Shown piece after piece: positions 1,126-63,940 of a stretch of 64,000 bases of DNA. The notes under the pieces were generated by a model. The model searched no databases and was not told the origin of the DNA. It was given only the letters and a program-made list of their open reading frames with translations. The translations under genes were made by a program, and so were the position numbers. The first letter of the stretch is position 1. Each line of letters begins with the position of its first letter. Origin of the DNA: Comamonas kerstersii (GTDB lineage: Bacteria > Pseudomonadota > Gammaproteobacteria > Burkholderiales > Burkholderiaceae_C); the NCBI RefSeq assembly GCF_008801935.1, contig NZ_VZOT01000014.1:1-64000 (forward strand), read 5' to 3'.

Positions 1126-1189
1126 TAGCGCTTGTGTCATCTGGTTTTGCAAATGTAATCATTCACAAAGCCAGAGACAACAAGCGCTA
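1126..1189. repeat. Intergenic palindromic repeat copy (between LysR gene and purU)
   Basis: Two imperfect inverted arms of about 24 bases (1126-1149 and 1166-1189) begin and end with TAGCGCTTGT and ACAAGCGCTA. AT-rich flanks carry GCTTTTAAAAGC and its relatives. It lies between the 3' end of purU and the start of the LysR gene, both on the minus strand. It is a member of the dispersed repeat family found at ten or more other intergenic sites here. Confidence 0.75.
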
Positions 1190-1217
1190 GACGCTTTTAA
1201 TAAAAGAGCAGCCGTGC

Positions 1218-2066
1218 TTAGCGGAAGACGACGGTCTTGTGGCCGTTCAGAATCACGCGACGCTCGCTGTGCCACTTCACGGCACGGGCCAGCACCTGGC
1301 TTTCAGTATCCTGACCGCGTGTGGTCAGGTCTTCCACAGTGTCGGTGTGGTCGGCACGGGCCACGTCCTGCTCGATGATGGGGCCTTCGTCCAGATCGGC
1401 GGTCACGTAGTGGGCGGTCGCACCAATGAGCTTCACGCCGCGTTCGTGGGCCTGGTAGTAAGGCTTGGCGCCCTTGAAGCTGGGCAGAAAGCTGTGGTGG
1501 ATGTTGATGGCCTTGCCCGCCAGCTTTTGACACAGGTCATTTGAAAGCACCTGCATATAACGCGCCAGAACGACCAGCTCGGCGCCTTCCGCCTCGATAA
1601 TCTCGTACTGCTTGGCCTCGGCCTGTGCCTTGGTGGCAGCCGTCACGGGGATGTGGTGGAAGGGGATGTTGTAGCTGGCTGCGAGCTGATAGAAGTCGCG
1701 GTGGTTGCTGATGATGGCGCGAATGTCGATCGGCAGCTGACCCGAACTCCAGCGGAACAGCAGGTCGTTAAGGCAGTGGCCTTGGCGACTGACCATGAGG
1801 ACGGTCTTCATGCGCTCTTCCTGGGAGTGCAGGCTCCACTTCATCTCATAGGTCTGAGCCAGCTGTGCTGTGGCCTCTTTCAATGCGGCGATGTCTGTGT
1901 TCTCACAGGCAAACTGCACACGCATGAAGAAAAGGCCGGTCGCATTGTCGTTGTACTGGGAGGCTTCTTCGATATTGGCGCCCTGCTCCAGCAAGAAGCC
2001 GGAGACGGCGTGCACCAGACCGCGTCGGTCTGGGCAGGAAAGAGTAAGAATATAGGCTTGGGTCAT
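1218..2066 (-). CDS. purU: Formyltetrahydrofolate deformylase
   Basis: A 282-residue protein that hydrolyses 10-formyl-THF to THF and formate, balancing the one-carbon pool and feeding formate to purine synthesis. An N-terminal ACT domain (starts MTQAYILTLSCPDRRGLV, about residues 1-85) precedes a formyltransferase-fold domain. The hydrolase signature NIHHSFLPSFKGAKPY and the GATAHYVTADLDEGPIIEQ block are intact. The ATG at 2066 is chosen because family members begin at MTQAYI; the 31 residues in frame upstream are not conserved in type. Divergent from the c-di-GMP gene 53 bases away. Confidence 0.96.
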   Translation of the reverse strand: MTQAYILTLSCPDRRGLVHAVSGFLLEQGANIEEASQYNDNATGLFFMRVQFACENTDIAALKEATAQLAQTYEMKWSLHSQEERMKTVLMVSRQGHCLNDLLFRWSSGQLPIDIRAIISNHRDFYQLAASYNIPFHHIPVTAATKAQAEAKQYEIIEAEGAELVVLARYMQVLSNDLCQKLAGKAINIHHSFLPSFKGAKPYYQAHERGVKLIGATAHYVTADLDEGPIIEQDVARADHTDTVEDLTTRGQDTESQVLARAVKWHSERRVILNGHKTVVFR

Positions 2067-2119
2067 AGCCCTGCAATTGTCGCAGCATGGCTGCAGCCAA
2101 TAATGAATTGAGGAAATAC

Positions 2120-4465
2120 ATGCAACAAGAGGGCGTTGACACCGTTGCACACATGGCACCGGGGCGTGCTTTTACGCTCTATCTGGTCGCCGGGCTGGTG
2201 TGGTTCGGCGCTGGTGACATCGGCCTGCCATGGCTCGTGCAAGACCGTGAAATGTATGTCCTGCTGCAGCGCTCACAGGACTACATCTTTGTGTTGCTGT
2301 CTGGCTGCTACGCGGCCTGGCTGATGTGGCGCATTCACCGCGGCGAAAAGCACCGCGCCAGCGTGGGTGAAGCGCTGGCCAAGAGTGAAGAGCGCCTGCG
2401 CCTGGCCCTGGAAGGCAGTGGCAGCGGCATGTGGGACTGGGATCTGGTGCAGGGCCGCCACACCTTCTCACCCAATGTGCCGGCCATGCTGCGCTACCAG
2501 GGCAGCGACTTTGACAAGGACTTTCAGCTGCTGCTGCGCCTGCACCCCAAGGATGCCAATCTGGTGCGGCAGCAGGCCTTTGATGCTTTGCACAAGGGCC
2601 TGCCCTTTGTCATGACCGTGCGTGTGCTGTGCTTTGACGGGCAGTACCGCTGGTTCGAAGCACGTGGCAACCGCTATCTGAATGAACAGGGCAAACCCAT
2701 TCGCCTGTGCGGCATCGTGGCCGACAAGACGCAGCAGCGCGAGGAAGAAGATCGCCTGCGCCTGGCTGCGACTGTGGTGGACAACACCTCCGAAGGCATT
2801 GTGGTCACGGATGCGAACAGCCAGATTCTGTCCACCAACCCAGCTTTTTCCCGTCTGATGGGCTATGAAGCCAACGAGCTGATTGGCAAACGCCCTTCTG
2901 TGTTCAAGTCCGGCCGTCACGGCAAGGACTTTTACGACGCACTGTGGGACACGCTCAACCGCACCGGCCACTGGAGCGGAGAAATCTGGAACAAGCGCAA
3001 GAACGGTGAAATCTTTCCAGAGCGCATGTCGCTCAACGCCGTCAAGGATGCCAGCGGCAAGACCACGCACTATGTGTGCATGTTCACAGACATTTCCGAG
3101 GAAAAGCGGCGCGAGAAGCAGCTGGAGTTTCTGGCGCACCGCGATGCATTGACCGGGCTGCCCAACCGCGCCTGGTTCATGCAGGAACTCACGTGCATCA
3201 CGGACACTGCGGCCCCACACACCCAGCAGCCCATGGCAGCCATCTTGCTCAATCTGGATCGCTTCAAGGATGTGAACGACAGCTATGGCCATGCCGTGGG
3301 CGACGAAGTGCTGCGCCACATCGCACGCCAGGTGCAGTCTGCGCTGCGCCCCGGTGATCTGATTGCCCGCATGGCGGGCGATGAAATCGTGGTGCTGGCC
3401 CGTGCGCTTAGCAGCCTTGAGGAGGCTTCGGACATGGCCGAGCAGCTCATTCAGGCCGCCGCCCAACCCTGGAAGTCTCCCGACGGGTTTGAAGTGGTTG
3501 TCAGCGTGCGTGCAGGCATCTGCTGCTACCCCCAGCACGCACAGACGGCTGCCAGCCTGGTGCAGGGCGCCCACGCCGCCGTCTATGGTGCCAAGCAGGG
3601 CAAGGGCGGCAGCAAATACTGGTGCTTTTTCGATGACGCCATGCCCCAGGCCGCGCACGAGCGCATTGCGCTGGAAGCACGCCTGCGCAATGCGCTGGTA
3701 CAGGGGCACCTGCAGCTGTACTACCAGCCACAGGTGGACATTGCCAGCAACCGCATCGTGGGCTGCGAGGCGCTGATCCGCTGGTTTGACCCCGTGGAGG
3801 GCATGATTTCCCCCGCGCGCTTTATCCCGGTGGCAGAGACGTCTGGCCTCATCGGCCCGCTCGGTACCTGGGTGCTGGAAGCCGCCTGCAACCAGGCACA
3901 GGCCTGGACACGCCAGGGGCTGCCTGCCATCTCGATGGCCGTGAACATCTCCATGCACCAGTTTCTGCTGACTGACATCGTGGGCGGTGTGCGTGATGCG
4001 CTAGGCAGCTCCCAGTGGCCTGCCTCGCAGCTGGAGCTGGAAATTACCGAAAGCGCACTGGCCGAGCGCCCCGAAGAAGCCCTGCAGGTGCTGCGCAAGC
4101 TCAAGGCCCTGGGCGTGCGCCTGGCCATTGATGACTTTGGCACAGGCTACTCGTCACTGGCCCACCTCAAGCGCTTTCCGATTGACCTGCTCAAGATCGA
4201 CCGCAGCTTTGTGCAGGATATTCCCCACAGCAAGGAAGACATGGCCATCAGCCATGCCGTCATCGCCATGGGCCAGAGCATGGACATGCAGGTGCTGGCC
4301 GAAGGCGTGGAAACGGCCGCACAGCTGGAGTTTCTGCGCCAGCATGGCTGCCAGCTCTACCAGGGCTATTACTGCAGCAAGCCCCTGCCTGCAGCAGAGT
4401 TTGCCGCCCTGCTGCGCGAAGACATGCAGCGGCCCAACGAAAGCAACCACTCCTTCGATATCTGA
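2120..4465 (+). CDS. Membrane-anchored PAS-PAS-GGDEF-EAL c-di-GMP signalling protein
   Basis: A 781-residue protein. Two membrane-spanning segments lie near the N-terminus (about residues 15-35 and 50-70), then two PAS domains with PAC-like ends (about 85-215 and 220-345), a diguanylate cyclase domain (about 355-500) and an EAL phosphodiesterase domain (about 525-775). The cyclase active site reads AGDEI (419-423) instead of GGDEF. The EAL site looks complete (EAL 550-552, EITES, DDFGTGYSSL from 671, LKIDRSF), so net c-di-GMP hydrolysis is the likelier activity. The start at ATG 2120 follows a GAGGA ribosome-binding site. The PAS ligand is unknown. Confidence 0.93.
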   Translation: MQQEGVDTVAHMAPGRAFTLYLVAGLVWFGAGDIGLPWLVQDREMYVLLQRSQDYIFVLLSGCYAAWLMWRIHRGEKHRASVGEALAKSEERLRLALEGSGSGMWDWDLVQGRHTFSPNVPAMLRYQGSDFDKDFQLLLRLHPKDANLVRQQAFDALHKGLPFVMTVRVLCFDGQYRWFEARGNRYLNEQGKPIRLCGIVADKTQQREEEDRLRLAATVVDNTSEGIVVTDANSQILSTNPAFSRLMGYEANELIGKRPSVFKSGRHGKDFYDALWDTLNRTGHWSGEIWNKRKNGEIFPERMSLNAVKDASGKTTHYVCMFTDISEEKRREKQLEFLAHRDALTGLPNRAWFMQELTCITDTAAPHTQQPMAAILLNLDRFKDVNDSYGHAVGDEVLRHIARQVQSALRPGDLIARMAGDEIVVLARALSSLEEASDMAEQLIQAAAQPWKSPDGFEVVVSVRAGICCYPQHAQTAASLVQGAHAAVYGAKQGKGGSKYWCFFDDAMPQAAHERIALEARLRNALVQGHLQLYYQPQVDIASNRIVGCEALIRWFDPVEGMISPARFIPVAETSGLIGPLGTWVLEAACNQAQAWTRQGLPAISMAVNISMHQFLLTDIVGGVRDALGSSQWPASQLELEITESALAERPEEALQVLRKLKALGVRLAIDDFGTGYSSLAHLKRFPIDLLKIDRSFVQDIPHSKEDMAISHAVIAMGQSMDMQVLAEGVETAAQLEFLRQHGCQLYQGYYCSKPLPAAEFAALLREDMQRPNESNHSFDI

Positions 4466-4486
4466 GCTTCCGCCAGATACCCGAAA

Positions 4487-4526
4487 AAAAAGAGGCGCTG
4501 TGCATCAGCGCCTCTTTGCTTTTTAT
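4487..4526. terminator. Bidirectional rho-independent terminator
   Basis: A perfect stem (AAAGAGGCGCTG, 4489-4500, paired with CAGCGCCTCTTT, 4506-4517) has a T-rich tail on the plus side and an A-run on the other side. It sits between the convergent c-di-GMP gene and the DUF3567 gene and can serve both. Confidence 0.85.
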
Positions 4527-4537
4527 AGGGGGAAATC

Positions 4538-4834
4538 TCAATGGATAAGCACCGGGTTCTGCGCCAGCTGTGCATAGCGCTCCAGCGTGGCTTCGACCTC
4601 GTCTTCGTCCGGTGCTTCACGCTGCCAGTCCTGTATGACCTGCTGGAACAGCTCAGCCCAGGAGCCATCGAGATACACCTCTTTGCCAGAGCGCTTGTCC
4701 ACGATTTCAAAACCATGGCGGGGCAGCGCAGGCACCGAACCCATGCCATCAGCGCGGGGGACTTCCGTGGGCATGCCCAGATCAGGCCTCAGATGGAGCA
4801 CCACAAAAGAATCCGAGTCATACAGCATTTTCAT
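4538..4834 (-). CDS. DUF3567 family small protein
   Basis: A 98-residue acidic protein matching the betaproteobacterial DUF3567 family, known only as a conserved hypothetical. No signal peptide or membrane segment is visible; it begins MKMLYDSDSFVVLHL and contains GFEIVDKRSGKEVYLDGSWA, so it is probably cytoplasmic. The start at 4834 is supported by AGGAGG at 5-10 bases upstream; an in-frame extension to 4960 is not needed. It is a single-gene unit with its own terminator. Function unknown. Confidence 0.85.
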   Translation of the reverse strand: MKMLYDSDSFVVLHLRPDLGMPTEVPRADGMGSVPALPRHGFEIVDKRSGKEVYLDGSWAELFQQVIQDWQREAPDEDEVEATLERYAQLAQNPVLIH

Positions 4835-4979
4835 GGCGCCCTCCTTTCTTGTCTGCGTGTCCATATGTGAATACCGAGAGCCAAATAAGGACGTCGTATA
4901 CAGTTTCAAGAGGCCTGCCCGGCAGACCGGTACACACAGTATTTCATGAAGCTGCGGCACCTGCGTTCACGCACGGAAT

Positions 4980-5798
4980 TTAGGGCTTTGCGTGCGACTG
5001 CAGCTTCAGATCCAGCTCGTCACGGCCACCGTCTTCCAGCATGCGGATGCGCACCGGCAGATACTGCATGCCAGGTGCCAGCCACAGGGTAGATTGCAGA
5101 TCGTTATCACCACCGTCAGAGGCATGTTCGAGCTTGAGCGCCGTCATGCTGCCTGCAGGCAGCTTCAGCGTTTCGCTGCCGCGCACGGTAAATGTCCATA
5201 CCGCAACACGGCTGCTGCTGGCAGCCTGCACGGTAATGCTGCTGCCTGCGGGATATTTTTGGGGTGCGGCAGCAATCATGCCCGCCACCTGAAAGAACAC
5301 ACTCAGGCGGTCCTGTGTGCCAGCCACCAGCGGAGCGGCGGCTGAGCCACGGCTGAACACAATCTGCCCGGTCTGCGCATCAAAGGTGGTGCTGTATTCC
5401 TTGCGGCCACGGTCGATAAAGATTTCCGGCTGCAGGCCCTGGGGCACTATGCTGCCCACACTGGCCTGGCGGCGAATGCCTACCAGCGGCACCTGCACCT
5501 GCTGCGAGGCTTCGTAGCGCTGGCCTTGCGGCAACCAGTCCATCTGCGCCTTGGTCTGGTAAGGCAGGTTCTTGTACTTGCCCTGCACAGCAAACTGCAT
5601 GCGCGCTGCGGCGGGCGCTTTCCAGGCCCACTGGCCCTGTACCAGCAGCCCCTGAGGGTTGCGCACTTCAATCGGCGATCCAGATGCAGCAGGCTGGGCA
5701 CTGGCCGTGAACGCGCAGATGGTGAGCAGGCCTGCAGCAGCCAGCGTGCGGGTGTGCTTGGCAGTGCATACGGCAGGCACCAGAGAACGTAATGGCAT
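4980..5798 (-). CDS. Exported DUF3108 domain protein (first copy)
   Basis: A 272-residue protein with an N-terminal signal peptide (hydrophobic stretch about residues 14-34, ending near SAQA). The mature part is a DUF3108-type beta-rich domain with the family blocks LPYQTKAQMDWLPQG, EIFIDRGRKEYSTTFD and GTQDRLSVFFQ. The family is periplasmic or outer-envelope associated and without assigned function. It is a paralogue of the gene at 7021-8034: both end with a segment of the form LPVRI..LEDGGRDELDL. It lies divergent from the FAH-like gene. Confidence 0.87.
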   Translation of the reverse strand: MPLRSLVPAVCTAKHTRTLAAAGLLTICAFTASAQPAASGSPIEVRNPQGLLVQGQWAWKAPAAARMQFAVQGKYKNLPYQTKAQMDWLPQGQRYEASQQVQVPLVGIRRQASVGSIVPQGLQPEIFIDRGRKEYSTTFDAQTGQIVFSRGSAAAPLVAGTQDRLSVFFQVAGMIAAAPQKYPAGSSITVQAASSSRVAVWTFTVRGSETLKLPAGSMTALKLEHASDGGDNDLQSTLWLAPGMQYLPVRIRMLEDGGRDELDLKLQSHAKP

Positions 5799-5925
5799 GG
5801 GTGAACCTTAGAATTTGTGGGATACACCGCGGGGGCCGCTTGTTGTGCCAACCCTCGCATTCCAGTCTTTCCATTGTGGCAGCAGCGCCGGGCAGCTGCT
5901 GCACATGCCTTTCTATTCACCTTCC

Positions 5926-6951
5926 ATGAAACTTGCTACTTACAGAGACGGTTCCCGCGACGGACAGCTGGTTGTGGTCTCACGCGACCTGCGGTTTGCG
6001 CACTATGCCACGGGCATCGCATCACGCCTGCAGCAGGTGCTGGATGACTGGAGCTTCATGGCCCCGCAGCTGCAGGACCTGTACCAGCAGCTCAACAGCG
6101 GCCGTGCACCCCATGCCTTTGCCTTTGACCCCATGCAATGCCTAGCCCCGCTGCCCCGGGCCATGCAATGGGTAGAAGCGGCCGCCTACCCCTCGCATCT
6201 GGCGCTGACGCAGCCTGACTGGACACTGAGCACCACCGAGCCCCTGCTGCGCCAGGGCAGCAGCGACCTTTTCTTTGGCGCCTGTGACGAAATCGTGATT
6301 CCCAGCGCCGCCATGGGCATTGACTTTGGCGCTGGGCTGGCAGCCATCACCGGCGACCTGCCCATGGGCTGCACCGCAGAGCAGGCGCTGTATGGCGTAC
6401 GCCTGCTGATGCTGAGCAACACCCTGTGCCTGCGCCAGCTGATGCCTGAAGCACAGGGCATGGCGCTGAGCCACCTGCCCTGCTGGCCCGGCACAGGCAT
6501 GAGCCCCGTGGCAGTGACCGTGGATGAGCTGGGTGATGCCTGGCGCGGTGGCCGCGTGCAGCTGCCCCTGCACAGCAGCTGCAATGGCCGCAAGCTGGGC
6601 ATGTGCGATGCCGGACAGGACATGGCCTTTCACTTTGGACAGCTGATTGCCCATGTGGCCAGAACCCGCTCCATCCACGCAGGCAGCGTGATTGGCACGG
6701 GCGTAGTCAGCAATGCAGGCGAGACCACAGGCCGTGGCAAGGACAAGCATCTGGAGTGGCCCAAAGGGGCACACAGCATTGCTGAAAAGCGTGCCATGGA
6801 GCAGCAGCTGCATGGCAGCGCCAGCACCGGCTACCTGCAGTTTGGGGACAACGTACGCATCGAGATGAAGGGCAAAGACGGTGCCAGCATTTTTGGTGCG
6901 ATCGACCACACCATCGTGTCACCGCAGGGGGATGGCAGCAGCGATGCATAA
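5926..6951 (+). CDS. Fumarylacetoacetate hydrolase family protein
   Basis: A 341-residue protein of the FAH superfamily, metal-dependent hydrolases or isomerases acting on beta-diketo acids. The sequence shows an FAH N-terminal-like region (MKLATYRDGSRDGQLVVVSRD), the segment EIVIPSAAMGIDFGAGLAAI and the C-terminal region GDNVRIEMKGKDGASIFGAI typical of the metal-binding barrel. The ATG at 5926 is chosen because homologues begin MKLATY; 37 further residues could be read upstream. No other aromatic catabolism gene is near, so the substrate is open. It sits between two DUF3108 paralogues. Confidence 0.9.
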   Translation: MKLATYRDGSRDGQLVVVSRDLRFAHYATGIASRLQQVLDDWSFMAPQLQDLYQQLNSGRAPHAFAFDPMQCLAPLPRAMQWVEAAAYPSHLALTQPDWTLSTTEPLLRQGSSDLFFGACDEIVIPSAAMGIDFGAGLAAITGDLPMGCTAEQALYGVRLLMLSNTLCLRQLMPEAQGMALSHLPCWPGTGMSPVAVTVDELGDAWRGGRVQLPLHSSCNGRKLGMCDAGQDMAFHFGQLIAHVARTRSIHAGSVIGTGVVSNAGETTGRGKDKHLEWPKGAHSIAEKRAMEQQLHGSASTGYLQFGDNVRIEMKGKDGASIFGAIDHTIVSPQGDGSSDA

Positions 6952-6962
6952 AGAAATTGGCC

Positions 6963-6996
6963 TCTAGCGCTTATTCCATAAGCGATAGCAGCTATC
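6963..6996. repeat. Short palindromic repeat copy
   Basis: CTAGCGCTTAT and ATAAGCGATAG flank a three-base loop, followed by CAGCTAT. This is a compact version of the AGCGCT-type repeat, placed between the convergent ends of the FAH-like and DUF3108 genes. It lacks a T-run, so it is a weak candidate terminator. Confidence 0.6.
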
Positions 6997-7020
6997 AATT
7001 CTCAAGCAGCCATTCACCCA

Positions 7021-11799: not shown

Positions 11800-11876
<77 letters not shown>

Positions 11877-20990: not shown

Positions 20991-21097
20991 AGGATAGCTA
21001 ATAGCGCTTGCTAGATATTGATTTCAAATAAGTTTTTATCTGAAATCCACAAAAATAAAGCGCTGGCAGCTTCTTTTTCAGGAGCTATCCAGCGCTT
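20991..21097. repeat. Palindromic repeat copy, large form (between spc unit and glpD)
   Basis: GGATAGCTAATAGCGCTTG at the left is matched by AAGCGCTGGCAGCTTC and again by GAGCTATCCAGCGCTT at the right. The centre holds an inner stem GATTTCA with TGAAATC (21020-21047) around TTTTTATC. It fills most of the space between the glpD stop codon and the ribosomal promoter. Confidence 0.75.
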
Positions 21098-25687: not shown

Positions 25688-25767
25688 AGAGCTGCTAGCG
25701 CTGACGCAATGGACTTTTCAAAGCAAAAAGTATTTGAAAACCAAGCAATACAGGCACTGGCAGCTCT
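25688..25767. repeat. Palindromic repeat copy (between glpK and proC)
   Basis: AGAGCTGCTAGCGCT at the left faces CACTGGCAGCTCT at the right, 80 bases overall. The element ends 21 bases before the proC start codon. Confidence 0.7.
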
Positions 25768-36287: not shown

Positions 36288-36367
36288 AGTAGCTGCCTAC
36301 GCTGTATTAAAAAGGATTTCAGATACTTTTTTATCTGAAATCTTTTATCTGTCAGCGCAACAAGCTC
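36288..36367. repeat. Palindromic repeat copy with strong inner hairpin
   Basis: The outer arms are AGTAGCTGCCTACGCTGT and CTGTCAGCGCAACAAGCTCTT. The inner stem is perfect over 11 bases (GATTTCAGATA at 36315-36325 with TATCTGAAATC at 36332-36342), loop CTTTTT. It shares its inner hairpin with the copy near 21020. It separates the convergent nucleotidase and esterase genes. Confidence 0.8.
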
Positions 36368-38014: not shown

Positions 38015-38099
38015 AGCTACTTACGCTGTTAAGACCAAGGATTCGCGGGGAAAGTTGCTTGAAGTCGAGGTTCTACCAACGCTACAAGCTATGTTTTTA
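38006..38099. repeat. Palindromic repeat copy overlapping the esterase start
   Basis: AAAAACATAGCT at the left is matched by AGCTATGTTTTT at the right, with ACGCTGTT and AACGCTAC further in. The left arm contains the reverse complement of the ATG and first codons of the esterase gene. Confidence 0.7.
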
Positions 38100-38122: not shown

Positions 38123-38881
38123 CTACGCAAAGTAGTGGCACAGGCGCTGGCCTTTGATCTCATGCACGCTGACGGGAATCTCATACAGCGCGCTCAAGAC
38201 CTCATCCGTCACCACCTGCAACGGTGCGCCTTCGTGCGCCACATGGCCGTTTTTCATGGCGATGATGTGGTCGGCATAGCAGCTGGCAAAGTTGATGTCG
38301 TGCAGCACCACCACCACGGTTTTCCGGCGCTCATTCACGAGGCGGCGCAGCAGCTTCATCATGCTCACGGCATGGGCCATGTCGAGGTTGTTCAGCGGCT
38401 CGTCCAGCAGGATGTAGGGCGTGTCCTGGCACAGCACCATGGCGATGTAGGCACGCTGGCGCTGACCGCCTGAGAGTTCATCCAGATAGCGATCCGCCAG
38501 CGGCGTGAGCTGCAGGAACTCCAGCGCCTGATTCACGTGCTGAACGTCCTCAGCCGTCATGCGGCCCTTGCTGTGTGGAAAGCGGCCAAAGCCCACCAGA
38601 TCGCGCACCGTCAGGCGCAGGGTGGACTGGTTGTCCTGCCGCAAAATGGCCATCACCTTGGCCAGCGCATCGCTGGCGGTTTTGGCCACATCCAGCCCCG
38701 CCACATGGGCCGAGCCAGACGTGATGGCATCCAGGCGGCTGACCATGGACAGCAGCGTGCTCTTGCCCGCTCCGTTGGGGCCGATGATGGCCGTGAACTG
38801 CCCCACCGGAATCTGCACACTCACCCCATGCAGTACCGTGGTGCTGCCGTGGGTCTTCGCGACCTTATGTGTCTCAATCAT
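38123..38881 (-). CDS. Siderophore ABC transporter, ATP-binding protein (CeuD/FatE-like)
   Basis: A 252-residue ABC ATPase that powers the importer. Walker A is GPNGAGKSTL, the signature is LSGGQRQRAYIAMV, and Walker B is YILLDEPLNNLD. Its ATG overlaps the stop of the upstream permease by 4 bases, so translation is coupled. It resembles the catecholate-siderophore branch (CeuD, FatE, YclP) rather than vitamin B12 transporters. It is the last gene of the importer, before the esterase. Confidence 0.93.
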   Translation of the reverse strand: MIETHKVAKTHGSTTVLHGVSVQIPVGQFTAIIGPNGAGKSTLLSMVSRLDAITSGSAHVAGLDVAKTASDALAKVMAILRQDNQSTLRLTVRDLVGFGRFPHSKGRMTAEDVQHVNQALEFLQLTPLADRYLDELSGGQRQRAYIAMVLCQDTPYILLDEPLNNLDMAHAVSMMKLLRRLVNERRKTVVVVLHDINFASCYADHIIAMKNGHVAHEGAPLQVVTDEVLSALYEIPVSVHEIKGQRLCHYFA

Positions 38882-42918: not shown

Positions 42919-43638
42919 TCAATACCCGTGCCGCTCCCGAAACGCCTTGGCCTGCCCGAAGTGGCCATTGCCCATAAACGGCACCGGCGGGCGCAGGGCG
43001 GACAGCGGCGAGGGGTGGTTGCTCATCAGCACCAAGTGGCCGCGGTCCTGCGGGATCAGCACACGCTTGGACTGGGCGTGGCTGCCCCAGAGCATGAACA
43101 CCGTGGGTCTGCCCTGCTGCGCCACATACTGAATGATGCTGTCGGTCAGCACTTCCCAGCCTTTTTTGCTGTGGCTGGCGGCCTGGCCTTCTTCCACCGT
43201 GAGGCAGGTGTTGAGCAGCAGCACGCCGTTCTGCGCCCATTTCACCAGTGAGCCGCCGGGGTTGGGAAACGGTGGAAAGGGCACGCCCAGATCGCGCTGC
43301 ATTTCCTTGAAGATGTTCTGCAGCGAAGGCGGCAGGCGCACACCGGGGGCGACAGAAAACGCCAGCCCTTCGGCCTGCCCACGGCCGTGGTACGGGTCTT
43401 GCCCCAGAATCACCACACGCACATCGTCAGGCGCTGTCAGCTCCAGCGCACGCAGGGGCTGAGGCGGGAAGATCACCGCCCCGTCATCGAGCCGCTGCTG
43501 CAAAAAGTCCAGCACCTTCTGCCCCAGGGGCGAGAAAAAGAAACTGTCGACCAGTTCCTGCCAGCCCGGCGCAACAGGCCAGTCGCTGGGGTTGGCGCTC
43601 ATCAATTGCGTAGCTGCTTGCGCTGATGAATCGGTCAT
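42919..43638 (-). CDS. ung: Uracil-DNA glycosylase
   Basis: A 239-residue family 1 glycosylase that removes uracil from DNA. The active-site block is GQDPYHGRGQAEGLAFSV and the HPSPLSA motif is near the C-terminus. A start at ATG 43638 (MTDSSAQAATQL) is likely, but ATG 43602 (MSANPSDWPV) is possible. The stretch coding SAQAATQ lies inside a palindromic repeat arm, so these residues may be repeat-derived. Terminal residues RERHGY are normal. Confidence 0.93.
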   Translation of the reverse strand: MTDSSAQAATQLMSANPSDWPVAPGWQELVDSFFFSPLGQKVLDFLQQRLDDGAVIFPPQPLRALELTAPDDVRVVILGQDPYHGRGQAEGLAFSVAPGVRLPPSLQNIFKEMQRDLGVPFPPFPNPGGSLVKWAQNGVLLLNTCLTVEEGQAASHSKKGWEVLTDSIIQYVAQQGRPTVFMLWGSHAQSKRVLIPQDRGHLVLMSNHPSPLSALRPPVPFMGNGHFGQAKAFRERHGY

Positions 43639-43688
43639 TTCAGGCCACTTTCTCTCTGAAAACAAATAAAGGCAAGCGCGAGATGCTT
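43609..43688. repeat. Palindromic repeat copy overlapping the ung N-terminus
   Basis: TAGCTGCTTGCGCTGATGA (43611-43629) is matched by GGCAAGCGCGAGATGCTT at 43671-43688. The left arm falls within codons for SAQAAT of ung, if the longer start is used. Confidence 0.6.
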
Positions 43689-45808: not shown

Positions 45809-45890
45809 AGAAGCTGCTTGCGCTTGCAATACCTGGCTTTTAGATATTTATTGCTTTCAAATCCAATAAAAACCAGCGCTGGCAGCTATC
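45809..45890. repeat. Palindromic repeat copy (between trpG and trpD)
   Basis: AGAAGCTGCTTGCGCTTG at the left is matched by CCAGCGCTGGCAGCTATC at the right, with an AT-rich centre. It lies between the trpG terminator and the trpD start codon. Confidence 0.75.
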
Positions 45891-45928
45891 AAAAACAAAG
45901 GCCGCCTGCATGCAGCAGTGCGGCCTTG
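45891..45928 (-). terminator. Terminator after trpG
   Basis: On the minus strand AAGGCCGC pairs with GCGGCCTT, followed by TGTTTTTG. It ends the trpE-CM-trpG unit and splits it from trpD-trpC. Confidence 0.75.
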
Positions 45929-45932
45929 GGGC

Positions 45933-51596: not shown

Positions 51597-51632
51597 CTAT
51601 AGCATCCAGCGCTTATCTGACGGGCGCTAGAT
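51597..51632. repeat. Short palindromic repeat copy between rpe and gph
   Basis: ATAGCATCCAGCGCTTAT is followed by GGGCGCTAGAT, a compact form of the family. It overlaps the presumptive leader of gph and abuts the terminator of rpe. Confidence 0.55.
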
Positions 51633-51642
51633 CCAAAAAAAC

Positions 51643-51673
51643 ACTATAAAAAAGGCCTGCAGATGCAGGCCTT
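51643..51673 (-). terminator. Terminator after rpe
   Basis: On the minus strand AAGGCCTGC pairs with GCAGGCCTT around a short loop, followed by TTTTTATAG. It separates rpe from gph. Confidence 0.85.
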
Positions 51674-51707
51674 GGAGAGCAAAACAGCGATCACCGCGCC
51701 GCGGCAA

Positions 51708-57375: not shown

Positions 57376-57460
57376 AGTAGCTGCTACGGCTTGAAAAACA
57401 ACCACTTCAGCATACTTTCATGCTGAAAGCATTTAAAAATCAGCGCTAGGCGCTCCTATT
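57376..57460. repeat. Palindromic repeat copy upstream of thiL
   Basis: AGTAGCTGCTACGGCTTG and ATCAGCGCTAGGCGCTCCT form the outer arms, with an inner stem TTCAGCAT/ATGCTGAA. It ends 6 bases before the thiL start codon. Confidence 0.7.
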
Positions 57461-57466
57461 TTCATC

Positions 57467-58435: not shown

Positions 58436-58467
58436 AGCACCGCAGGCGCGACTTCTACAATCCGCCC

Positions 58468-59022
58468 ATGGAACCTATTACCGATGTGGAGCCCAAGCAC
58501 TCCACCGCAGCTGAAGGCGCGCCCATTCGCCCCACGGTGCGTTTTTTGCTGCAGCACCCTGCCCACCTGATCGCCATCGGCTTTGGCTCAGGCCTGAGCC
58601 GTGTCGCACCCGGCACCGTAGGCACGATGTGGGCATGGCTGGCCTATCTGGTGCTGCAGCAATGGCTGAGCACGGCACAGCTGGGCTGGCTGATCGCCAT
58701 CAGCATTCCCGTGGGCTGGTGGGCCTGCACCGTCACCGCACGCCATATGCGCGTGCCAGACCCCGGCTCCATCGTCTGGGATGAAGTCGTCGCCATGTGG
58801 ATCGTGCTGTGGCTGACCATGCCCATGGGCTTCTGGGGACAGCTGACCGCTTTTGCGCTGTTTCGCTTTTTTGATGCCGTCAAACCGCAGCCCGTCAAAT
58901 GGGCAGATCGCCTGTTCAAGGGTTTGGGCCCCAAGGGCGGCTGGGGCATCATGTTCGACGATCTGGTCGCCGCGTTCTGCACCTTGCTGGTCATGGCGCT
59001 GTGGCGACACTTTGTGGGATAA
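58468..59022 (+). CDS. pgpA: Phosphatidylglycerophosphatase A
   Basis: A 184-residue membrane phosphatase. It converts phosphatidylglycerophosphate to phosphatidylglycerol. The block FGSGLSRVAPGTVGTMWAWL and the later VWDEVVAMWIVLWLTMP carry the conserved acidic residues, and four hydrophobic segments are seen. It is 32 bases after thiL and 3 bases before pncC. Confidence 0.94.
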   Translation: MEPITDVEPKHSTAAEGAPIRPTVRFLLQHPAHLIAIGFGSGLSRVAPGTVGTMWAWLAYLVLQQWLSTAQLGWLIAISIPVGWWACTVTARHMRVPDPGSIVWDEVVAMWIVLWLTMPMGFWGQLTAFALFRFFDAVKPQPVKWADRLFKGLGPKGGWGIMFDDLVAAFCTLLVMALWRHFVG

Positions 59023-59025
59023 GCC

Positions 59026-59523
59026 ATGTCTTGCGACCCCAACCTGCTCCCCATCCTGCAGCAACTGGCCGATGCCCTCCAGCAGCGCGGCTGGATGCTG
59101 GCCACGGCAGAAAGCTGCACTGGCGGCATGATTGCCGCAGCCTGCACGGATTTACCAGGCTCCAGCAACTGGTTTGATCGCGGCTTTGTCACCTACTCCA
59201 ACGACGCCAAAACCGAGATGCTGAGCGTGCCTGCTGCCTTGATTGCAGAACACGGAGCGGTGAGCGAAGCCGTGGTGCGAGCCATGGCAAAAGGAGCCAT
59301 TACACATTCCAAGGCACAAGTGAGTGTGGCCGTCAGTGGTGTGGCTGGGCCTGGTGGTGGAACGCCGGAGAAACCTGTGGGGACGGTGTGGGTGGCGTGG
59401 CAAATAGCCGATCAGACTTATAGCCAATGCGTGCAGTGGGAGGGTGATCGATTGGCAGTACGCCAACAAACTACACACCATGCACTTCAGCAACTGCTGC
59501 TGTACTTGCTGCAGGCTCAATAA
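59026..59523 (+). CDS. pncC: Nicotinamide-nucleotide amidase (CinA C-terminal domain)
   Basis: A 165-residue stand-alone CinA-C domain protein (TAESCTGGMIAAACTDLPG, VTYSNDAKTEMLSV, VAVSGVAGPGGGTPEKPVGT). It deamidates nicotinamide mononucleotide to recycle NAD. It lacks the N-terminal CinA domain. It is third in the thiL-pgpA-pncC unit. Confidence 0.93.
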   Translation: MSCDPNLLPILQQLADALQQRGWMLATAESCTGGMIAAACTDLPGSSNWFDRGFVTYSNDAKTEMLSVPAALIAEHGAVSEAVVRAMAKGAITHSKAQVSVAVSGVAGPGGGTPEKPVGTVWVAWQIADQTYSQCVQWEGDRLAVRQQTTHHALQQLLLYLLQAQ

Positions 59524-59733
59524 ACCAGCTCTGCAGCACCGCCACAATTGAGCTGTGCACCATATTCAGCCCCCGCCAGCACTTGGGTCTTGAATCCGCC
59601 CAATCTTAAAAGTGCTCGGCACATTTCTGCACTGGTGGCTCAGCCAGCATCCTGGCAGCATCGCTGCCTAGTGCCCCATCTCACAGCCGCGACGCCATGG
59701 AGCCGTGTCAGCAATTACTCATAAAATCCGCGT

Positions 59734-59758
59734 CTTTGTAAGCATCTGTCTTACAAGA
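59734..59758. promoter_or_regulatory. Small inverted repeat upstream of the TPR protein gene
   Basis: TTGTAAG and CTTACAA are separated by about 8 bases, following an AT-rich stretch with CATAAAAT that could be a -10 region. In the 280-base gap between pncC and the TPR gene. Possible operator. Confidence 0.35.
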
Positions 59759-59803
59759 GACAATGCCAACCTTCTATCCACACCGTCCTTCGAAAGTGCA
59801 TCC

Positions 59804-60985
59804 ATGTTCCTAGCCTTTGTGCGTCCCTTGCTTGGCAAGCCTCTCGTGCGCTGCGCATGGCTACGCCCAATGTCCGTGGCAGCGGTCATGTGTGCTTCGC
59901 TACTCAGCCATGGGGGGGCACATGCAAGCCCTGCTGCCGTTGATGAAGTGCAGCAATTGATGGAAAAAGGGCAGCTCAGCGCTGCCGCCCAGCGTGTACA
60001 AGCCCAGCTCAAAAAAGACAGCAGTGATGTGCAGTTGCGGTTTCTGCAGGCAGTGATTGCGGCTGAGCAAAAAAAATACGATCAGGCCATCCGGCTGTTT
60101 ACCGCGCTGACCCAGGACCATCCCACGCTGCCCGAGCCCTATAACAATCTGGCGGTCATTTATGCCTTCCGGGGAGAGGACCGCAAGGCAGCCCAGGTGC
60201 TGGAGCAGGCCATCCGCACCAACCCCAGCTACGCCACCGCGCACCAGAATCTCGGGGATGTCTATGCACGCATTGCCAATGAAGCCTATGCCAAGGCCTT
60301 GCAGCTGGACAATGCACAGAAAGCGGAAAAGCCCAAGCTGACGCTGATCTCCCGCATCGCCACACCTGCTGCCACGGCCAGCGCCCTGCCTGCCCCCACA
60401 GCAGCGGCTGTCACCATCGCTGCAGCCACAGCACCAGTGCCTGCTCCGGCACCTGAACCCGCACCGACTCCTGCACCGGCTGCTCCTATCACGACCACGC
60501 CAGCACCTGCAGAACCAGCAGCAACGGCTGCCCCCCCTGCAGCGCCTGCTCCTGAACCCAAGCCTGCTGCAACACCTGCCAAGGCTGCTGCAGACAGCGC
60601 CGCTGAGCACAATGCCCGCAAGGCACAGGCTGCCGAGCAGGAGCGCCAGGCCATGAAAGCGGTGGAAAAAGCTGTGGCTGCCTGGGCTTCGGCCTGGGAA
60701 AAACAGAACATGAATGCCTATTACGCGGCCTACAGCAACCGCTTTGACCCGCAAGGCATGAGCCTGTCTGCATGGAAAGCAGAGCGCAAAAACCGTATCG
60801 TTGGCAAGCCCGCCATCTCTGTGAAAATCAGCGACCTCAAGATCACTGTCAACGGAGACCGCGCCTCCGCCAGCTTTCGGCAGCAATATTCTTCTGGCGG
60901 CTACAGAGCCTCCACCAACAAGACACTGCGTATGCAAAACGAAGGAGGCAAGTGGCGCATTACTCGAGAAGAAACTGGCCGTTAA
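59804..60985 (+). CDS. Exported TPR protein with Pro/Ala linker and NTF2-like C-terminus
   Basis: A 393-residue protein. A signal sequence (cleavage near AHA, about residue 42) leads to three tetratricopeptide repeats (about 44-170; EQKKYDQAIRLFTALTQDHP, EPYNNLAVIYAFRGEDRKAA), then a Pro/Ala-rich stretch (about 185-290) and an NTF2-like domain (about 295-393; WASAWEKQNMNAYYAAYSNR). A secreted or periplasmic binding role is likely. ATG 59804 is the simplest start; an upstream ATG at 59705 lacks a signal context. Its stop overlaps the ATG of the L,D-transpeptidase. Confidence 0.82.
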   Translation: MFLAFVRPLLGKPLVRCAWLRPMSVAAVMCASLLSHGGAHASPAAVDEVQQLMEKGQLSAAAQRVQAQLKKDSSDVQLRFLQAVIAAEQKKYDQAIRLFTALTQDHPTLPEPYNNLAVIYAFRGEDRKAAQVLEQAIRTNPSYATAHQNLGDVYARIANEAYAKALQLDNAQKAEKPKLTLISRIATPAATASALPAPTAAAVTIAAATAPVPAPAPEPAPTPAPAAPITTTPAPAEPAATAAPPAAPAPEPKPAATPAKAAADSAAEHNARKAQAAEQERQAMKAVEKAVAAWASAWEKQNMNAYYAAYSNRFDPQGMSLSAWKAERKNRIVGKPAISVKISDLKITVNGDRASASFRQQYSSGGYRASTNKTLRMQNEGGKWRITREETGR

Positions 60986-62238
60986 TGTTGCGTAATTTGA
61001 ATCTTTCACGCCTGCAGCGCAGCTTGCGCATGCTCTTCTCGGCACTGGTGATTGCTGGTACATGCACCGGGCTTCAGGCCGCGGACGACAGCAGCACATC
61101 GCCCGAACAACGCGTACAGGCTGAAAAGCGCCTGGTGGAAATCCTGGCGAAGATCGAGCGCCACGAAATCAATGAAGCCTTCCGCGCCGTCAAGGCATTG
61201 ACGGAGGAAGTCCCGAACTTCCGCGCTGCACAGCTGCTGTATGCCGACATGCTGCGCCTGCGCACGGGCAGTGCCCCGATCGGCGAGCAGCTCGCACGCT
61301 CGCAGGCCACGCCCAGCAAACAGAACATTGGCGTTGCCGACAAGAACATTGCACCTGCCGAGTTCTACCAGGGCCTGCAAAGCGAGCTGCAGCGCAGACG
61401 CCAGGCCCTGCTGGATGCACCTCCGGTAGGCAAGATCCCCAGCAGCTTCATGCGCCTGAGCCCCAGCGTACGCCATGCAATTGCGGTGGATGCCAGCAAG
61501 TCACGCCTGTACGTGTTTGCCAATCGCCCAGAAGGCGTGCAGCTCATCAGCGACTTCTACGTCACCATTGGCCGCAACGGCGTGCACAAGCGTGTCGAGG
61601 GCGATCAGCGCACGCCGCTGGGCGTCTACTTTGTGGGCCGCCAGATCCCCGGCGAGAAGCTGCCTGACCTGTACGGCAAGGGCGCGCTGACCGTGAACTA
61701 CCCCAATGACTGGGACCGCATGCTGGGCCGCACCGGCAGCGGCATCTGGCTGCATGGCGTGCCCTCGGACCAGTTTGCACGCATGCCCCAGGCCAGCGAT
61801 GGTTGCGTGGTGCTCTCCAACCCTGACATCGCCTTTCTGATGGCGTCCATCGACCGGCGCACGCCCGTGCTCATCACGGAGAAGCTGGACTGGGTCGCGC
61901 CCTCATGGACGGAACACCCTGACAGCTTCACGCAGGAGCTGGAGCGCTGGCAAACCGCCTGGCAGCAGGGCGACACCAGCAGCCTCAAGGCGCTGTACAG
62001 CCCGGAGCTGACGGAAGATGGCGCGGCTTTCAACCAGCGCAAACGCCGTCTGCAGAGCATGGGTGCACTGTCTGACAAGGCCACCAAAGACGCATCGATC
62101 TACCAGTGGCAGGAAGATGCAGGAGAGATTCGCATCGTCAACCTGCATGTAGCCCAGGGCAGCACCGCCACCGTGCGCCAGTACTGGCGCAAGCAGGATG
62201 GCCGCTGGCAGATTTTTTCGGAAGACATGCTCAGCTGA
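60985..62238 (+). CDS. L,D-transpeptidase with C-terminal NTF2-like domain
   Basis: A 417-residue exported enzyme. A signal region spans about residues 1-36, and a YkuD domain (about 150-290) carries His257 and Cys274 of the HG...SDGCV motif. An NTF2-like domain follows (about 310-417; WQTAWQQGDTSSLKALYSPE), alike in type to that of the gene before it. It probably crosslinks peptidoglycan or attaches proteins to it. Its ATG overlaps the TAA of the TPR gene by one base. Confidence 0.88.
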   Translation: MLRNLNLSRLQRSLRMLFSALVIAGTCTGLQAADDSSTSPEQRVQAEKRLVEILAKIERHEINEAFRAVKALTEEVPNFRAAQLLYADMLRLRTGSAPIGEQLARSQATPSKQNIGVADKNIAPAEFYQGLQSELQRRRQALLDAPPVGKIPSSFMRLSPSVRHAIAVDASKSRLYVFANRPEGVQLISDFYVTIGRNGVHKRVEGDQRTPLGVYFVGRQIPGEKLPDLYGKGALTVNYPNDWDRMLGRTGSGIWLHGVPSDQFARMPQASDGCVVLSNPDIAFLMASIDRRTPVLITEKLDWVAPSWTEHPDSFTQELERWQTAWQQGDTSSLKALYSPELTEDGAAFNQRKRRLQSMGALSDKATKDASIYQWQEDAGEIRIVNLHVAQGSTATVRQYWRKQDGRWQIFSEDMLS

Positions 62239-62247
62239 AGCTGCGCC

Positions 62248-62290
62248 CGCTCCATAAACAAAGCCCGCGTCTGCGGGCTTTGTTTATGGG
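62248..62290. terminator. Terminator after the L,D-transpeptidase
   Basis: CATAAACAAAGCCCGC pairs with GCGGGCTTTGTTTATG around GTCT. The stem has a T-rich right arm and lies between convergent genes. It can act for both strands. Confidence 0.8.
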
Positions 62291-62308
62291 CAATCTGCAA
62301 GCCGTGCC

Positions 62309-63787
62309 TCAGGTCTTCATGCGCTGAATCAGGCGCTGGCTGTTGGCATTCATGCCCAGCAGCTCGACCGTGCAGCCATGCTGCTGCAGACGCTCCACCA
62401 CCTTGTCCAGCGCGCCGATGGCGGTGATATCCCAGAAGTGTGCGCCGCTCACATCAATGCGCACAGGGCGCCCCGCCACGGCCAGCACATCAAACTGCTC
62501 GACCAGCGCATCGGCCGATGCAAAAAACACCTGCCCGCTCACATACCAGGTGCGCGTGCCCGTGGCTGCGTCGTCTTCGTGGCGTACCTGCAGCATGCCT
62601 GCGACCTTGAAGGTAAAGAACACACCAGACAGCAGCACCCCGGCGATCACGCCTGCCGCCAGATTGTGGGTAAAGACGGTGATGACCACGGTGGCCAGCA
62701 TCACGGCACTGGACAGGCGTGGATAGCGCACCAGATTGCCGACGGACTTCCAGTCAAAAGTCGAGGCCGACACCATCACCATGATGGCCACCAGCGCCAT
62801 CACTGGCACCTGCGACACCCAGGGCTTGAGCAGCACCATCAGCACCAGCAGAAACACGCCAGCGAACAGCGTAGACAGGCGGCCACGGCCCCCGTATTTC
62901 ACATTGCCCACGGCCTGGCCGATCATGCCGCAGCCCGCAATGCCGCCAAACACGCTGGAGGCCATATTGGCCAGCCCCAGCCCCGTGCACTCGCGGTTCT
63001 TGTTGCTGGGGGTGCCCGTCATTTCATCGACCACGGCCGCCGTCAGCACCGACTCCAGCAGGCCGACCATGGCAATGGCCAGCGCAGGCAGCATGATGAT
63101 GCGCAGCGTATCCAGCGTGGCGGGCACCTCAGGCAGGCCAAACAAGGGCAGCGCATCAGGCAGCTTGCCCAGATCAGCCACGGTGGCTACAGGCAGACCC
63201 AGCATGGAAGCCCCCACGGTGAGCAGCACCACGCAGATCAGCGGCGATGGAATCAGCAGCAGCGCCTTGAGCTGCAGGCGCTGCCCCAGCCATGGCAGAC
63301 CGTAGATGATGAGCAACCCGGCAGCCAGCATGGCCCAGGTGGCCGTATTGGCGCCCTGCAGATGCGGCAGCTGCGCCGCAAAAATCATGATGGCCAGCGC
63401 GTTCACAAAGCCGGTGCGCACCGAGCTGGAGACAAAGCGCATCAGCATGCCCATCCTGCACAGGCCAAAAACGATTTGCATGGCACCGGCCAGCAAACCG
63501 GCCGCAAACAGATACTGAATGCCGTGCGAAGCCACCAGGGGCGCAGCCACCAGCGCCACAGAACCCGCAGCTGCTGACACCATGGCCGGACGCCCGCCAA
63601 ACACGGCAATCACGATGCTGATCACAAACGAGGCAAACAGGCCCACCGATGGGTCCACCCCCGCCACAAACGAGAAGGCGATCACCTCAGGAATCAGCGC
63701 AAACGTTGCCACAGCACCGGCCAGCAATTCACGCGGAATGCTGGGCGCCCACTCCATGCGCAGCCGGTTCAGCAAAGACAAAGACAT
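62309..63787 (-). CDS. SulP-family anion transporter with STAS domain
   Basis: A 492-residue membrane transporter (sulfate permease family). It begins MSLSLLNRLRMEWAPSIPRE and has 10-12 hydrophobic segments (ATFALIPEVIAFSFVAGV, FGGIAGCGMIGQAVGN). A STAS domain is at the C-terminus (about 400-490; RPVRIDVSGAHFWDITAIGA). Bicarbonate or sulfate are the likely substrates for the family. Upstream lies a palindromic repeat. Confidence 0.9.
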   Translation of the reverse strand: MSLSLLNRLRMEWAPSIPRELLAGAVATFALIPEVIAFSFVAGVDPSVGLFASFVISIVIAVFGGRPAMVSAAAGSVALVAAPLVASHGIQYLFAAGLLAGAMQIVFGLCRMGMLMRFVSSSVRTGFVNALAIMIFAAQLPHLQGANTATWAMLAAGLLIIYGLPWLGQRLQLKALLLIPSPLICVVLLTVGASMLGLPVATVADLGKLPDALPLFGLPEVPATLDTLRIIMLPALAIAMVGLLESVLTAAVVDEMTGTPSNKNRECTGLGLANMASSVFGGIAGCGMIGQAVGNVKYGGRGRLSTLFAGVFLLVLMVLLKPWVSQVPVMALVAIMVMVSASTFDWKSVGNLVRYPRLSSAVMLATVVITVFTHNLAAGVIAGVLLSGVFFTFKVAGMLQVRHEDDAATGTRTWYVSGQVFFASADALVEQFDVLAVAGRPVRIDVSGAHFWDITAIGALDKVVERLQQHGCTVELLGMNANSQRLIQRMKT

Positions 63788-63860
63788 ACAGAGAGCCAAT
63801 CAAGCAATGAGGAACGTGATGGTAGAGCTTTGCCGGGCATCACGCCGACTTACAAAAACA

Positions 63861-63940
63861 AGAGCTGCCAGCGCTTGAAACACAAGGGATTCGGATAGAA
63901 AACTATCTCAAACCTTTGCAAATCAAGCGCTGGCAGCTCT
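63861..63940. repeat. Palindromic repeat copy with perfect 18-base arms
   Basis: AGAGCTGCCAGCGCTTGA (63861-63878) is the exact reverse complement of TCAAGCGCTGGCAGCTCT (63923-63940). The centre is AT-rich. The clearest full-length member of the family, 74 bases ahead of the SulP start codon. Confidence 0.9.

What the first reader, a model, noticed from the sequence alone, without database searches (positions are those of the whole stretch)
1126..63940. A dispersed AGCGCT-type palindromic repeat family occupies many intergenic gaps
At least eleven sites (about 1126, 6963, 20991, 25688, 36288, 38006, 43609, 45809, 51597, 57376, 63861) carry outer arms like AGCTGCCAGCGCT facing AGCGCTGGCAGCT, with spacers of up to about 70 bases. 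Two copies (21020 and 36315) share the inner hairpin GATTTCA...TTTTTATCTGAAATC, so they are copies rather than chance dyads. All lie between genes or at gene ends. One copy (63861-63940) has perfect 18-base arms. This looks like a REP, BIME or MITE-like element; no transposase or mobilising enzyme is evident. Whether it is already described in this family is not known to me.
Basis: partly seen in the sequence, partly recalled or inferred. Interest (0 to 1): 0.72.

Follow-up and report, generated by a model that had tools for sequence, protein, structure and literature searches.

The report
Fixed-length palindromic DNA repeats between genes
Hundreds of palindromic DNA elements of exactly 76 (or 35) letters sit behind genes in Comamonas-type bacteria, stay at the same places across species while their inner letters change, and look like DNA-level binding or folding sites whose job is unknown.

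Summary
The repeat family is real. All eleven sites hold a copy: nine of 76 nt, two of 35 nt. The own genome has 263 matches of the 76-nt pattern (backwards control 1) and 56 of the 35-nt pattern (control 0). Length is fixed: a free arm search of 864 kb found 69 spans of 76 and one of 75. Copies lie at gene ends (55/153 convergent, 71/562 tandem, 9/226 divergent gaps). Opposite columns co-vary, yet G.U and A.C mismatches are equal on the transcribed strand (126:118; ordinary terminator hairpins 52:19), so the constraint looks DNA-level. Sites are old: a congener keeps an element in 7 of 8 orthologous gaps (1 of 40 others). Architecture is closest to REPINs, but the RAYT link fails: own RAYT-like protein lacks one HUH histidine, repeat-rich genomes without the gene exist, RAYT loci are not enriched in copies. 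The family is patchy and decayed in one nested lineage. The short class is in print as an unexplained Acidovorax motif; I found no account of the long one. Spacing tends to be even (modest support). Most likely: a vertically kept, fixed-geometry DNA site for an unidentified symmetric DNA-binding factor.

The parts
1120..1195 (.). 76-nt element core
   Evidence: profile score 75; ssDNA fold z -6.6; element also at the orthologous gap of G303
6959..6993 (.). 35-nt class element (outer arms only)
   Evidence: pattern match; fold z -3.1; no 76-nt element scored at the corresponding gap of G303, which is 829 bases there
20996..21071 (.). 76-nt element core
   Evidence: profile score 99; fold z -2.6; also in G303 (score 29) and G302 (50) at the orthologous gap
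25690..25765 (.). 76-nt element core
   Evidence: profile score 89; fold z -2.1; also in G303 and G302
36291..36366 (.). 76-nt element core between convergent genes
   Evidence: profile score 99; fold z -4.7; flanking gene pair not mapped in the relatives' stretches
38015..38090 (.). 76-nt element core; does not fold better than shuffles
   Evidence: profile score 58; fold z -0.5; 76-nt elements beside the same gene in G322 and G302, none scored there in G303, G310, G306, G341, G333, G332, G301
43612..43687 (.). 76-nt element core; does not fold better than shuffles
   Evidence: profile score 75; fold z -0.1; element in G302 and G333, degenerate homologous sequence in G303 and G310
45812..45887 (.). 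76-nt element core
   Evidence: profile score 96; fold z -1.4; also in G303, none scored in G310
51601..51635 (.). 35-nt class element, weak match
   Evidence: pattern match 31 of 33; fold z -0.9
57379..57454 (.). 76-nt element core
   Evidence: profile score 78; fold z -2.6; also in G303, degenerate remnant in G310
63863..63938 (.). 76-nt element core with 18-base perfect arms
   Evidence: profile score 109; fold z -7.8

Best explanation
The elements are old, vertically inherited palindromic DNA sites of fixed geometry. Two conserved end boxes (AGCTGCYAGCGCTT and its mirror) are held at exactly one of two distances (start to start 63 bp in the 76-nt class, 22 bp in the 35-nt class). In the long class an inner stem with nearly invariant TT/AA, a central A4 or T4 tract and flanking A or T tracts complete the site. 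Shown: fixed length, mirror co-variation, gene-end location, positional conservation, no RNA-strand signature. Inferred: a symmetric DNA-binding factor reads both ends and the centre, either as bent duplex or as extruded hairpin, at the ends of transcription units; the factor, or its preference, was lost or changed in repeat-poor lineages, where old sites decay. The 63 and 22 bp distances are about 6.0 and 2.1 helical turns at 10.5 bp per turn, which would put both boxes on one face (arithmetic, not a test). A role in local chromosome or supercoil organisation is the most likely purpose; no test here shows it.
For: Length: 69 spans of 76 nt against one of 75 in G000, 13 against one of 78 in G128, although mean best-orientation identity between copies is 46/76. 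Mirror co-variation in 144 copies: outer stem z 7.9, inner 10.2, centre pairs anti-paired -12.2; mean co-variation is highest on the antidiagonal i+j=77 (0.032), with 76 and 78 at about 0.014 and the other sums from 70 to 84 near zero; G000 alone, 77 copies, pair 30/47 z 6.4. DNA rather than RNA: sense-strand G.U:A.C 126:118 in 71 tandem elements, 52:19 in T-tailed hairpins of the same genomes (Fisher p 0.0016). A/T tracts occur in either polarity: centre AAAA 30 and TTTT 19 of 77; flank TTTT 19 of 154 against 0.5 expected from column frequencies; centre orientation against transcription 13:13. Position: convergent 55/153, tandem 71/562, divergent 9/226 gaps. Orthologous gaps: G303 7/8 against 1/40, G128 3/7 against 1/34. 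Loss: G310 (6 matches) groups with G000 (263) and G322 (50), next to G303 (177), on a one-locus tree, with degenerate remnants at two sites. Spacing: variation below random draws of gaps in all sets.
Against: No binding protein identified. Two of 9 window copies do not fold and one folds weakly. Mirror co-variation could come from quasipalindrome correction during replication without selection (recalled mechanism). A preference for A on the 5' and T on the 3' flank remains (A about 70-75%), as in terminators. Gaps with an element hold fewer ordinary terminators (convergent 13/27 against 51/71; tandem 5/40 against 74/298), as expected if elements replace terminators. Spacing regularity is not significant in the newly fetched C2 part alone (p 0.16) nor, under the stricter null, in C2 (0.10) and G128 (0.19). 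The 144-copy co-variation pools three genomes, which can inflate z. In another genus positions are hardly shared (G190 1/9).
Confidence: 0.45

Rival explanations
1. Aged REPIN population: REP-type doublets once, or still very slowly, copied by a RAYT through an ssDNA hairpin. Fixed length and mirror pairing would be requirements of copying; positional conservation would reflect very low activity.
For: Same architecture as REPINs: conserved inverted ends, diverse spacer, critical length, compensatory changes, ssDNA hairpin, 71 bp between the GI 16-mers (PMC3116915 passages). RAYTs are described as vertically kept single-copy genes active at very low rates (PMC8049555 passages), and Y1-type genes are in 47 of 53 congeners, most of those looked at with an intact HUH motif. 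DNA-level pairing fits ssDNA. In two related genomes of another genus (G213, G283) one 76-nt element lies directly beside the RAYT-like gene.
Against: Own RAYT-like protein reads NQLH where most relatives read NHFH or NHLH; G136, with the most 35-nt matches, reads SQFH; but repeat-poor G289 reads SQFH too. No Y1 match in repeat-rich G302 (146 matches) and G335 (131), both 99% complete drafts, nor in G313 and G325 (85 and 87% complete), nor in G095 and G270 (19 each). 30 Y1-gene loci of repeat-rich genomes (99 kb; at least three of them of IS200 type by score) hold 4 elements, one each in four loci, against about 3.4 or more expected from each genome's own density, and no locus has one on both sides. 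No pair of 102 copies above 65/76. No GT[AG]G head.
Confidence: 0.27
2. Bidirectional intrinsic terminators or mRNA 3'-end stabilisers: the hairpin works in RNA, with A/T tracts as the tails.
For: 3'-end and convergent location; A/T tails; fewer ordinary terminators in gaps with an element.
Against: No G.U excess on the sense strand, while ordinary T-tailed hairpins in the same genomes show it; T tail not significantly stronger than A tail in tandem gaps (6.18 against 5.65 of 12, p 0.11); about a quarter of flank tracts have the other polarity; 18 of 67 convergent or tandem gaps with an element also hold an ordinary terminator; exact length is not needed for termination (inference).
Confidence: 0.15
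3. Strong gyrase or other topoisomerase sites that relieve supercoiling at convergent gene ends, as reported for E. coli BIME-2 (recalled).
For: Location; A/T-rich columns at the centre and about 10, 20 and 44 bp to either side (GC fractions); tendency to even spacing.
Against: No sequence link to a gyrase motif was tested; gyrase is universal (recalled), so wholesale loss in some lineages needs an extra assumption.
Confidence: 0.09
4. DNA uptake signal pairs, as in Neisseria and Pasteurellaceae.
For: Paired uptake signals form terminator-like hairpins there, mainly between convergent genes (PMC1852404 passages). Shorter words are mildly in excess outside elements (AGCGCTT 330 against 219 expected).
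Against: The long arm hardly occurs unpaired: AGCTGCTAGCGCT 0 of 16 and GCTAGCGCTT 0 of 21 outside elements, whereas Neisseria has many more single than paired signals.
Confidence: 0.02

Closest known systems
REPINs / REP doublets of Pseudomonas (PMC3116915, passages read)
   Same: Conserved inverted ends, diverse spacer whose length matters, compensatory changes, intergenic, many copies, predicted ssDNA hairpin.
   Different: No RAYT gene flanked by two copies in the loci examined, no GTAG-type head, positions kept between species at about 83% nucleotide identity, no near-identical copies among 102, A/T tracts at centre and flanks.
Unnamed motif pair GCTTAT(N)5AAGCG of Acidovorax ebreus (PMC5217627, section 13 read)
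   Same: Fits the 35-nt class in letters and spacing; 114 copies, 44 convergent, 4 divergent, 59 co-oriented, a context like the one here.
   Different: Given there as a potential novel motif; no full element, no 76-nt class, no function, no comparison between species in that section.
Correia/NEMIS elements of Neisseria (recalled; not compared by sequence)
   Same: Palindromic intergenic elements with size classes sharing their ends.
   Different: MITE-like with target duplications (recalled); here no evidence of mobility was found and target duplications were not examined.
Beta-proteobacterial repeat element BRE (PMC3110155, passages read)
   Same: Repeat reported mostly from intergenic regions, in Comamonadaceae among others.
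   Different: 75-91 bp, about 69% GC, sometimes in tandem, at most 29 copies; its letters were not in the passages, so no sequence comparison was made.
Paired uptake signals in terminators (PMC1852404, passages read)
   Same: Paired inverted motif with A/T tails, enriched tail to tail.
   Different: Here the long arm is almost never single, and the spacing is exact and long.

Membership tests
REP/REPIN with RAYT | Conserved inverted ends with diverse hairpin-forming spacer of set length | tested here: met
   individual copies fold unevenly
REP/REPIN with RAYT | Gene for a RAYT flanked by two copies of the repeat (PMC2817692 passages) | tested here: not met
   Own RAYT-like locus has none in 3.3 kb; 30 repeat-rich Y1 loci (99 kb) hold 4 copies, one per locus in four loci, about 3.4 or more expected by density
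REP/REPIN with RAYT | GT[AG]G or similar head tetranucleotide (PMC3733652, PMC2817692 passages) | tested here: not met
   Columns before the core: A/G, G/T, then AGC
REP/REPIN with RAYT | RAYT with intact HUH motif in repeat-bearing genomes | tested here: not met
   G000 and G136 have Gln for the first His; no Y1 match in G302, G335, G313, G325, G095, G270, G141; intact in most other repeat-bearing genomes looked at
REP/REPIN with RAYT | Excision or recent gain of copies | tested here: inconclusive
   No read data; no pair of 102 copies above 65/76; 7/8 orthologous gaps keep the element in G303
MITE | Terminal repeats shared with an autonomous transposon, target duplications, empty sites | not tested
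   Target duplications were not counted; gaps without the element exist in relatives, but two of those in G310 hold remnants
Intrinsic terminator | RNA hairpin followed by U tract under selection on the transcribed strand | tested here: not met
   G.U:A.C 126:118 against 52:19 in control hairpins
Intrinsic terminator | RNA 3' ends at the element | not testable with these tools
   needs Term-seq
DNA uptake signal | Many single copies genome-wide | tested here: not met
   long arms found almost only as pairs; shorter words mildly in excess
Known RNA family (Rfam 15) | Match above gathering score | tested here: not met
   Only one tRNA in the window

The most novel reading that the evidence does not exclude
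A chromosome-organising site family: exact-length palindromic DNA 'rulers', roughly one per 11-13 kb in the G000 and G303 stretches (19 kb in G128) and more evenly spaced than chance, read by a trans-acting architectural protein of this bacterial family, with en-bloc loss of sites when that factor goes.
Probability: 0.18. Interest if true: 0.85.

Novelty: new variant of a known kind. Interest (0 to 1): 0.6.

Why it matters
REP-type repeats are usually read either as selfish RAYT passengers or as RNA-level terminators. Here is a dense, patchily distributed family in which length and symmetry are kept at the DNA level at fixed gene-end sites while the letters turn over, and in which the expected transposase is broken in the own genome and missing from some repeat-rich ones. 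The 53 genomes of the genus, with 33 rich (14 or more matches) and 20 poor (7 or fewer), make the search for the reading factor directly testable.

Tried and rejected
RAYT as current mover: not supported. Y1 hit L001: looks like an IS200/IS605 tnpA/tnpB pair (tnpB named from recall), no element in its 3.4 kb. RNA terminator as main constraint: weakened by the G.U/A.C test. Uptake signal: disfavoured. A strict 10-kb period: suggested by C1 (10 of 55 consecutive spacings in 9.8-10.9 kb, 2.3 in random draws), pre-specified in a note and not reproduced in the new C2 data (1 against 1.1); G303 3 against 0.9, p 0.06: rejected. Concerted replacement of copies: orthologues are only slightly more alike than paralogues (inner identity G303 25.7/46, paralogues 21.8, G128 18.7), so it is not excluded. 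A gene-content comparison for a trans factor was not possible, since whole genomes were not available as files. Literature: nine searches in an open-licence library; in what they listed and in the papers opened I found no account of the 76-nt class; subscription papers were not searchable. Opened without use: PMC12306157 (abstract and a term search without hits), PMC6006769, PMC2267715, PMC2755013 (passages). Rows left out: elements called genic or at a stretch end were dropped from the tandem tests (7 genic and 2 end of 144); orthologous gaps were counted only where both flanking genes mapped next to each other (8 for G303, 7 for G128, 9 for G190, 3 for G289); L048 gave no RAYT protein, and five loci showed no readable HUH context. 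The order-level search used the 35-nt pattern only. The patterns derive from G000, so divergent variants elsewhere are undercounted.
Full report
What is there. The window is G000:C14 of a 3.51-Mb genome in 37 contigs. One congener, G310, is very probably Comamonas sp. NoAH 5: its contig C45 has the length (282052) of NZ_JASAUZ010000045.1 and gives the same alignment to the window. The genus is therefore taken to be Comamonas and the family f1 of the held set the Comamonadaceae group (inference). All eleven reported sites are confirmed: nine copies with a 76-nt core and two with a 35-nt core. A 106-column profile found 46 copies in 464 kb; the best score in five Markov random sequences was -18.7, the lowest copy 55. 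Later 144 copies were taken from G000 (102), G303 (23) and G128 (19). Invariant in the first 46 copies are AGC (1-3), G11, TT (28-29) and their mirrors; the centre is mostly A4 or T4; A or T tracts lie at -7 to -4 and the mirror; conservation fades about 13 nt outside the core.

Exact length. When both arms were searched independently with any span up to 200 nt, G000 (864 kb) gave 69 spans of 76, 11 of 35, one of 75 and scattered single values; G128 gave 13 of 76, one of 78 and 4 of 35; G190 gave 4 of 76 and 8 of 35; G289 none of either. Yet G000 copies share on average 46 of 76 positions in best orientation and none of 5151 pairs exceeds 65. Substitutions are plentiful and length changes almost absent among recognisable copies.

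Pairing and level of selection. In 77 G000 copies mirror pair 30/47 co-varies (C-G 45, G-C 11, T-A 3; z 6.4), as do 25/52 and 27/50, while 37/40 and 38/39 avoid pairing. In 144 copies the outer (z 7.9) and inner stem (z 10.2) pair more than column shuffles, and co-variation peaks on the antidiagonal i+j=77, with its two neighbours at half that height; pooling genomes may inflate z. On the transcribed strand of 71 tandem elements G.U and A.C mismatches are equal (126:118), while single mismatches in T-tailed hairpins of gaps without an element in the same genomes are 52:19 (Fisher p 0.0016). That argues for a DNA-level constraint, as duplex or as ssDNA hairpin. Against a pure hairpin reading, two of nine window copies do not fold better than shuffles and one folds only weakly.

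Place. Pooled over three genomes there are 55 copies for 153 convergent gaps of at least 76 nt, 71 for 562 tandem and 9 for 226 divergent (Fisher convergent against divergent p 3e-16); 7 copies were called genic and 2 lay at ends (home-made gene caller). In G000 12 cores begin 7 nt and 5 begin 8 nt after a stop codon, so the stop codon then lies in the A-rich flank. Ordinary T-tailed terminators are fewer in gaps with an element (convergent 13/27 against 51/71; tandem 5/40 against 74/298), which counts for the terminator rival; equally, 18 of 67 such element gaps hold both.

Age. In G303 (83% nucleotide identity over 3.7 kb) 7 of 8 comparable G000 element gaps hold an element, against 1 of 40 other gaps; G128 3/7 against 1/34; G190 (other genus) 1/9 against 0/55; G289 0/3 against 0/24. 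Some orthologous pairs are clearly related (57379: 56/76); others differ as much as paralogues do. Beside the gene at 38123, 76-nt elements sit in G322 and G302, none scored in G303, G310, G306, G341, G333, G332 and G301. G310, with 6 pattern matches, groups with G000 (263) and G322 (50), next to G303 (177), on a 2.7-kb one-locus tree (support 0.92-0.96), and carries degenerate remnants at 43612 and 57379. This reads as loss.

Distribution. 76-nt pattern: 18 of 299 genomes of the family with 10 or more matches; 33 of 53 genomes of the genus with 14 or more and 20 with 7 or fewer. 35-nt pattern: 37 of 299 with 10 or more, up to 354; in 243 genomes of other families of the order at most 2 per genome.

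RAYT test. The own genome has two Y1 matches: an apparent IS200/IS605 pair and a RAYT-like protein with NQLH where most relatives have NHFH. G136 (73 and 354 matches) has SQFH, but so has repeat-poor G289. Y1 matches are found in 47 of 53 congeners; the six without are G300, G302, G313, G325, G329 and G335, of which G302, G313, G325 and G335 are repeat-rich. Thirty Y1-gene loci of repeat-rich genomes, 99 kb in all, hold 4 elements, one each in L031, L039, L041 and L042, against about 3.4 or more expected from each genome's own density; in L041 and L042, two related genomes, the element lies directly beside the gene. No locus has one on both sides, so the arrangement that defines RAYT-borne REPs (PMC2817692, passages) is not met, although the architecture is that of REPINs (PMC3116915, passages).

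Spacing. Coefficient of variation of consecutive distances against draws of gaps weighted by orientation: C1 0.62/0.93 (p 0.0002), C2 0.70/0.92 (0.037), its newly fetched part alone 0.75/0.91 (0.16), G303 0.59/0.89 (0.0096), G128 0.60/0.91 (0.019). With a stricter null of gene-end gaps: p 0.0002, 0.10, 0.022, 0.19, combined 7e-5; without C1, where the pattern was first seen, 0.016. The specific 10-kb period failed its pre-specified test.

Known or new. The 35-nt class fits GCTTAT(N)5AAGCG of Acidovorax ebreus, 114 copies, 44 convergent, 4 divergent, 59 co-oriented, left unexplained (PMC5217627, section 13). The searches listed under Tried and rejected turned up nothing on the 76-nt class. I place the family as a new variant of the REP/REPIN kind: it is built like one, but membership with a RAYT fails.

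Noticed in passing
G000 C1:257804-260891 (in L015/L016): A CRISPR array with 52 exact copies of a 27-base repeat stretch about every 60 bases; it looks like a type I-F repeat (recalled).
   Followed up: no
L001 1486-2991 (G000:C18): Apparent IS200/IS605 tnpA and tnpB genes in divergent orientation (tnpB named from recall).
   Followed up: partly
L002 1120-2001; L046; L047: RAYT-like proteins of two repeat-rich genomes and one repeat-poor one have Gln in place of the first histidine of the HUH motif.
   Followed up: partly
window 45888-45930 and 51636-51690: Ordinary terminator-like hairpins (AAGGCC...GGCCTT) lie directly beside an element and share its A tract (read).
   Followed up: partly
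L023 (NoAH 5), in the stretch printed last: A 76-column sequence with TT28-29/AA48-49 in register but other arms (counted by eye): perhaps a decayed or variant copy.
   Followed up: no
L041 and L042, 1860-1935: In two related genomes (G213, G283) a 76-nt element lies directly beside the RAYT-like gene.
   Followed up: partly
window 11803-11876: tRNA gene on the minus strand, the only Rfam hit in the window.
   Followed up: no
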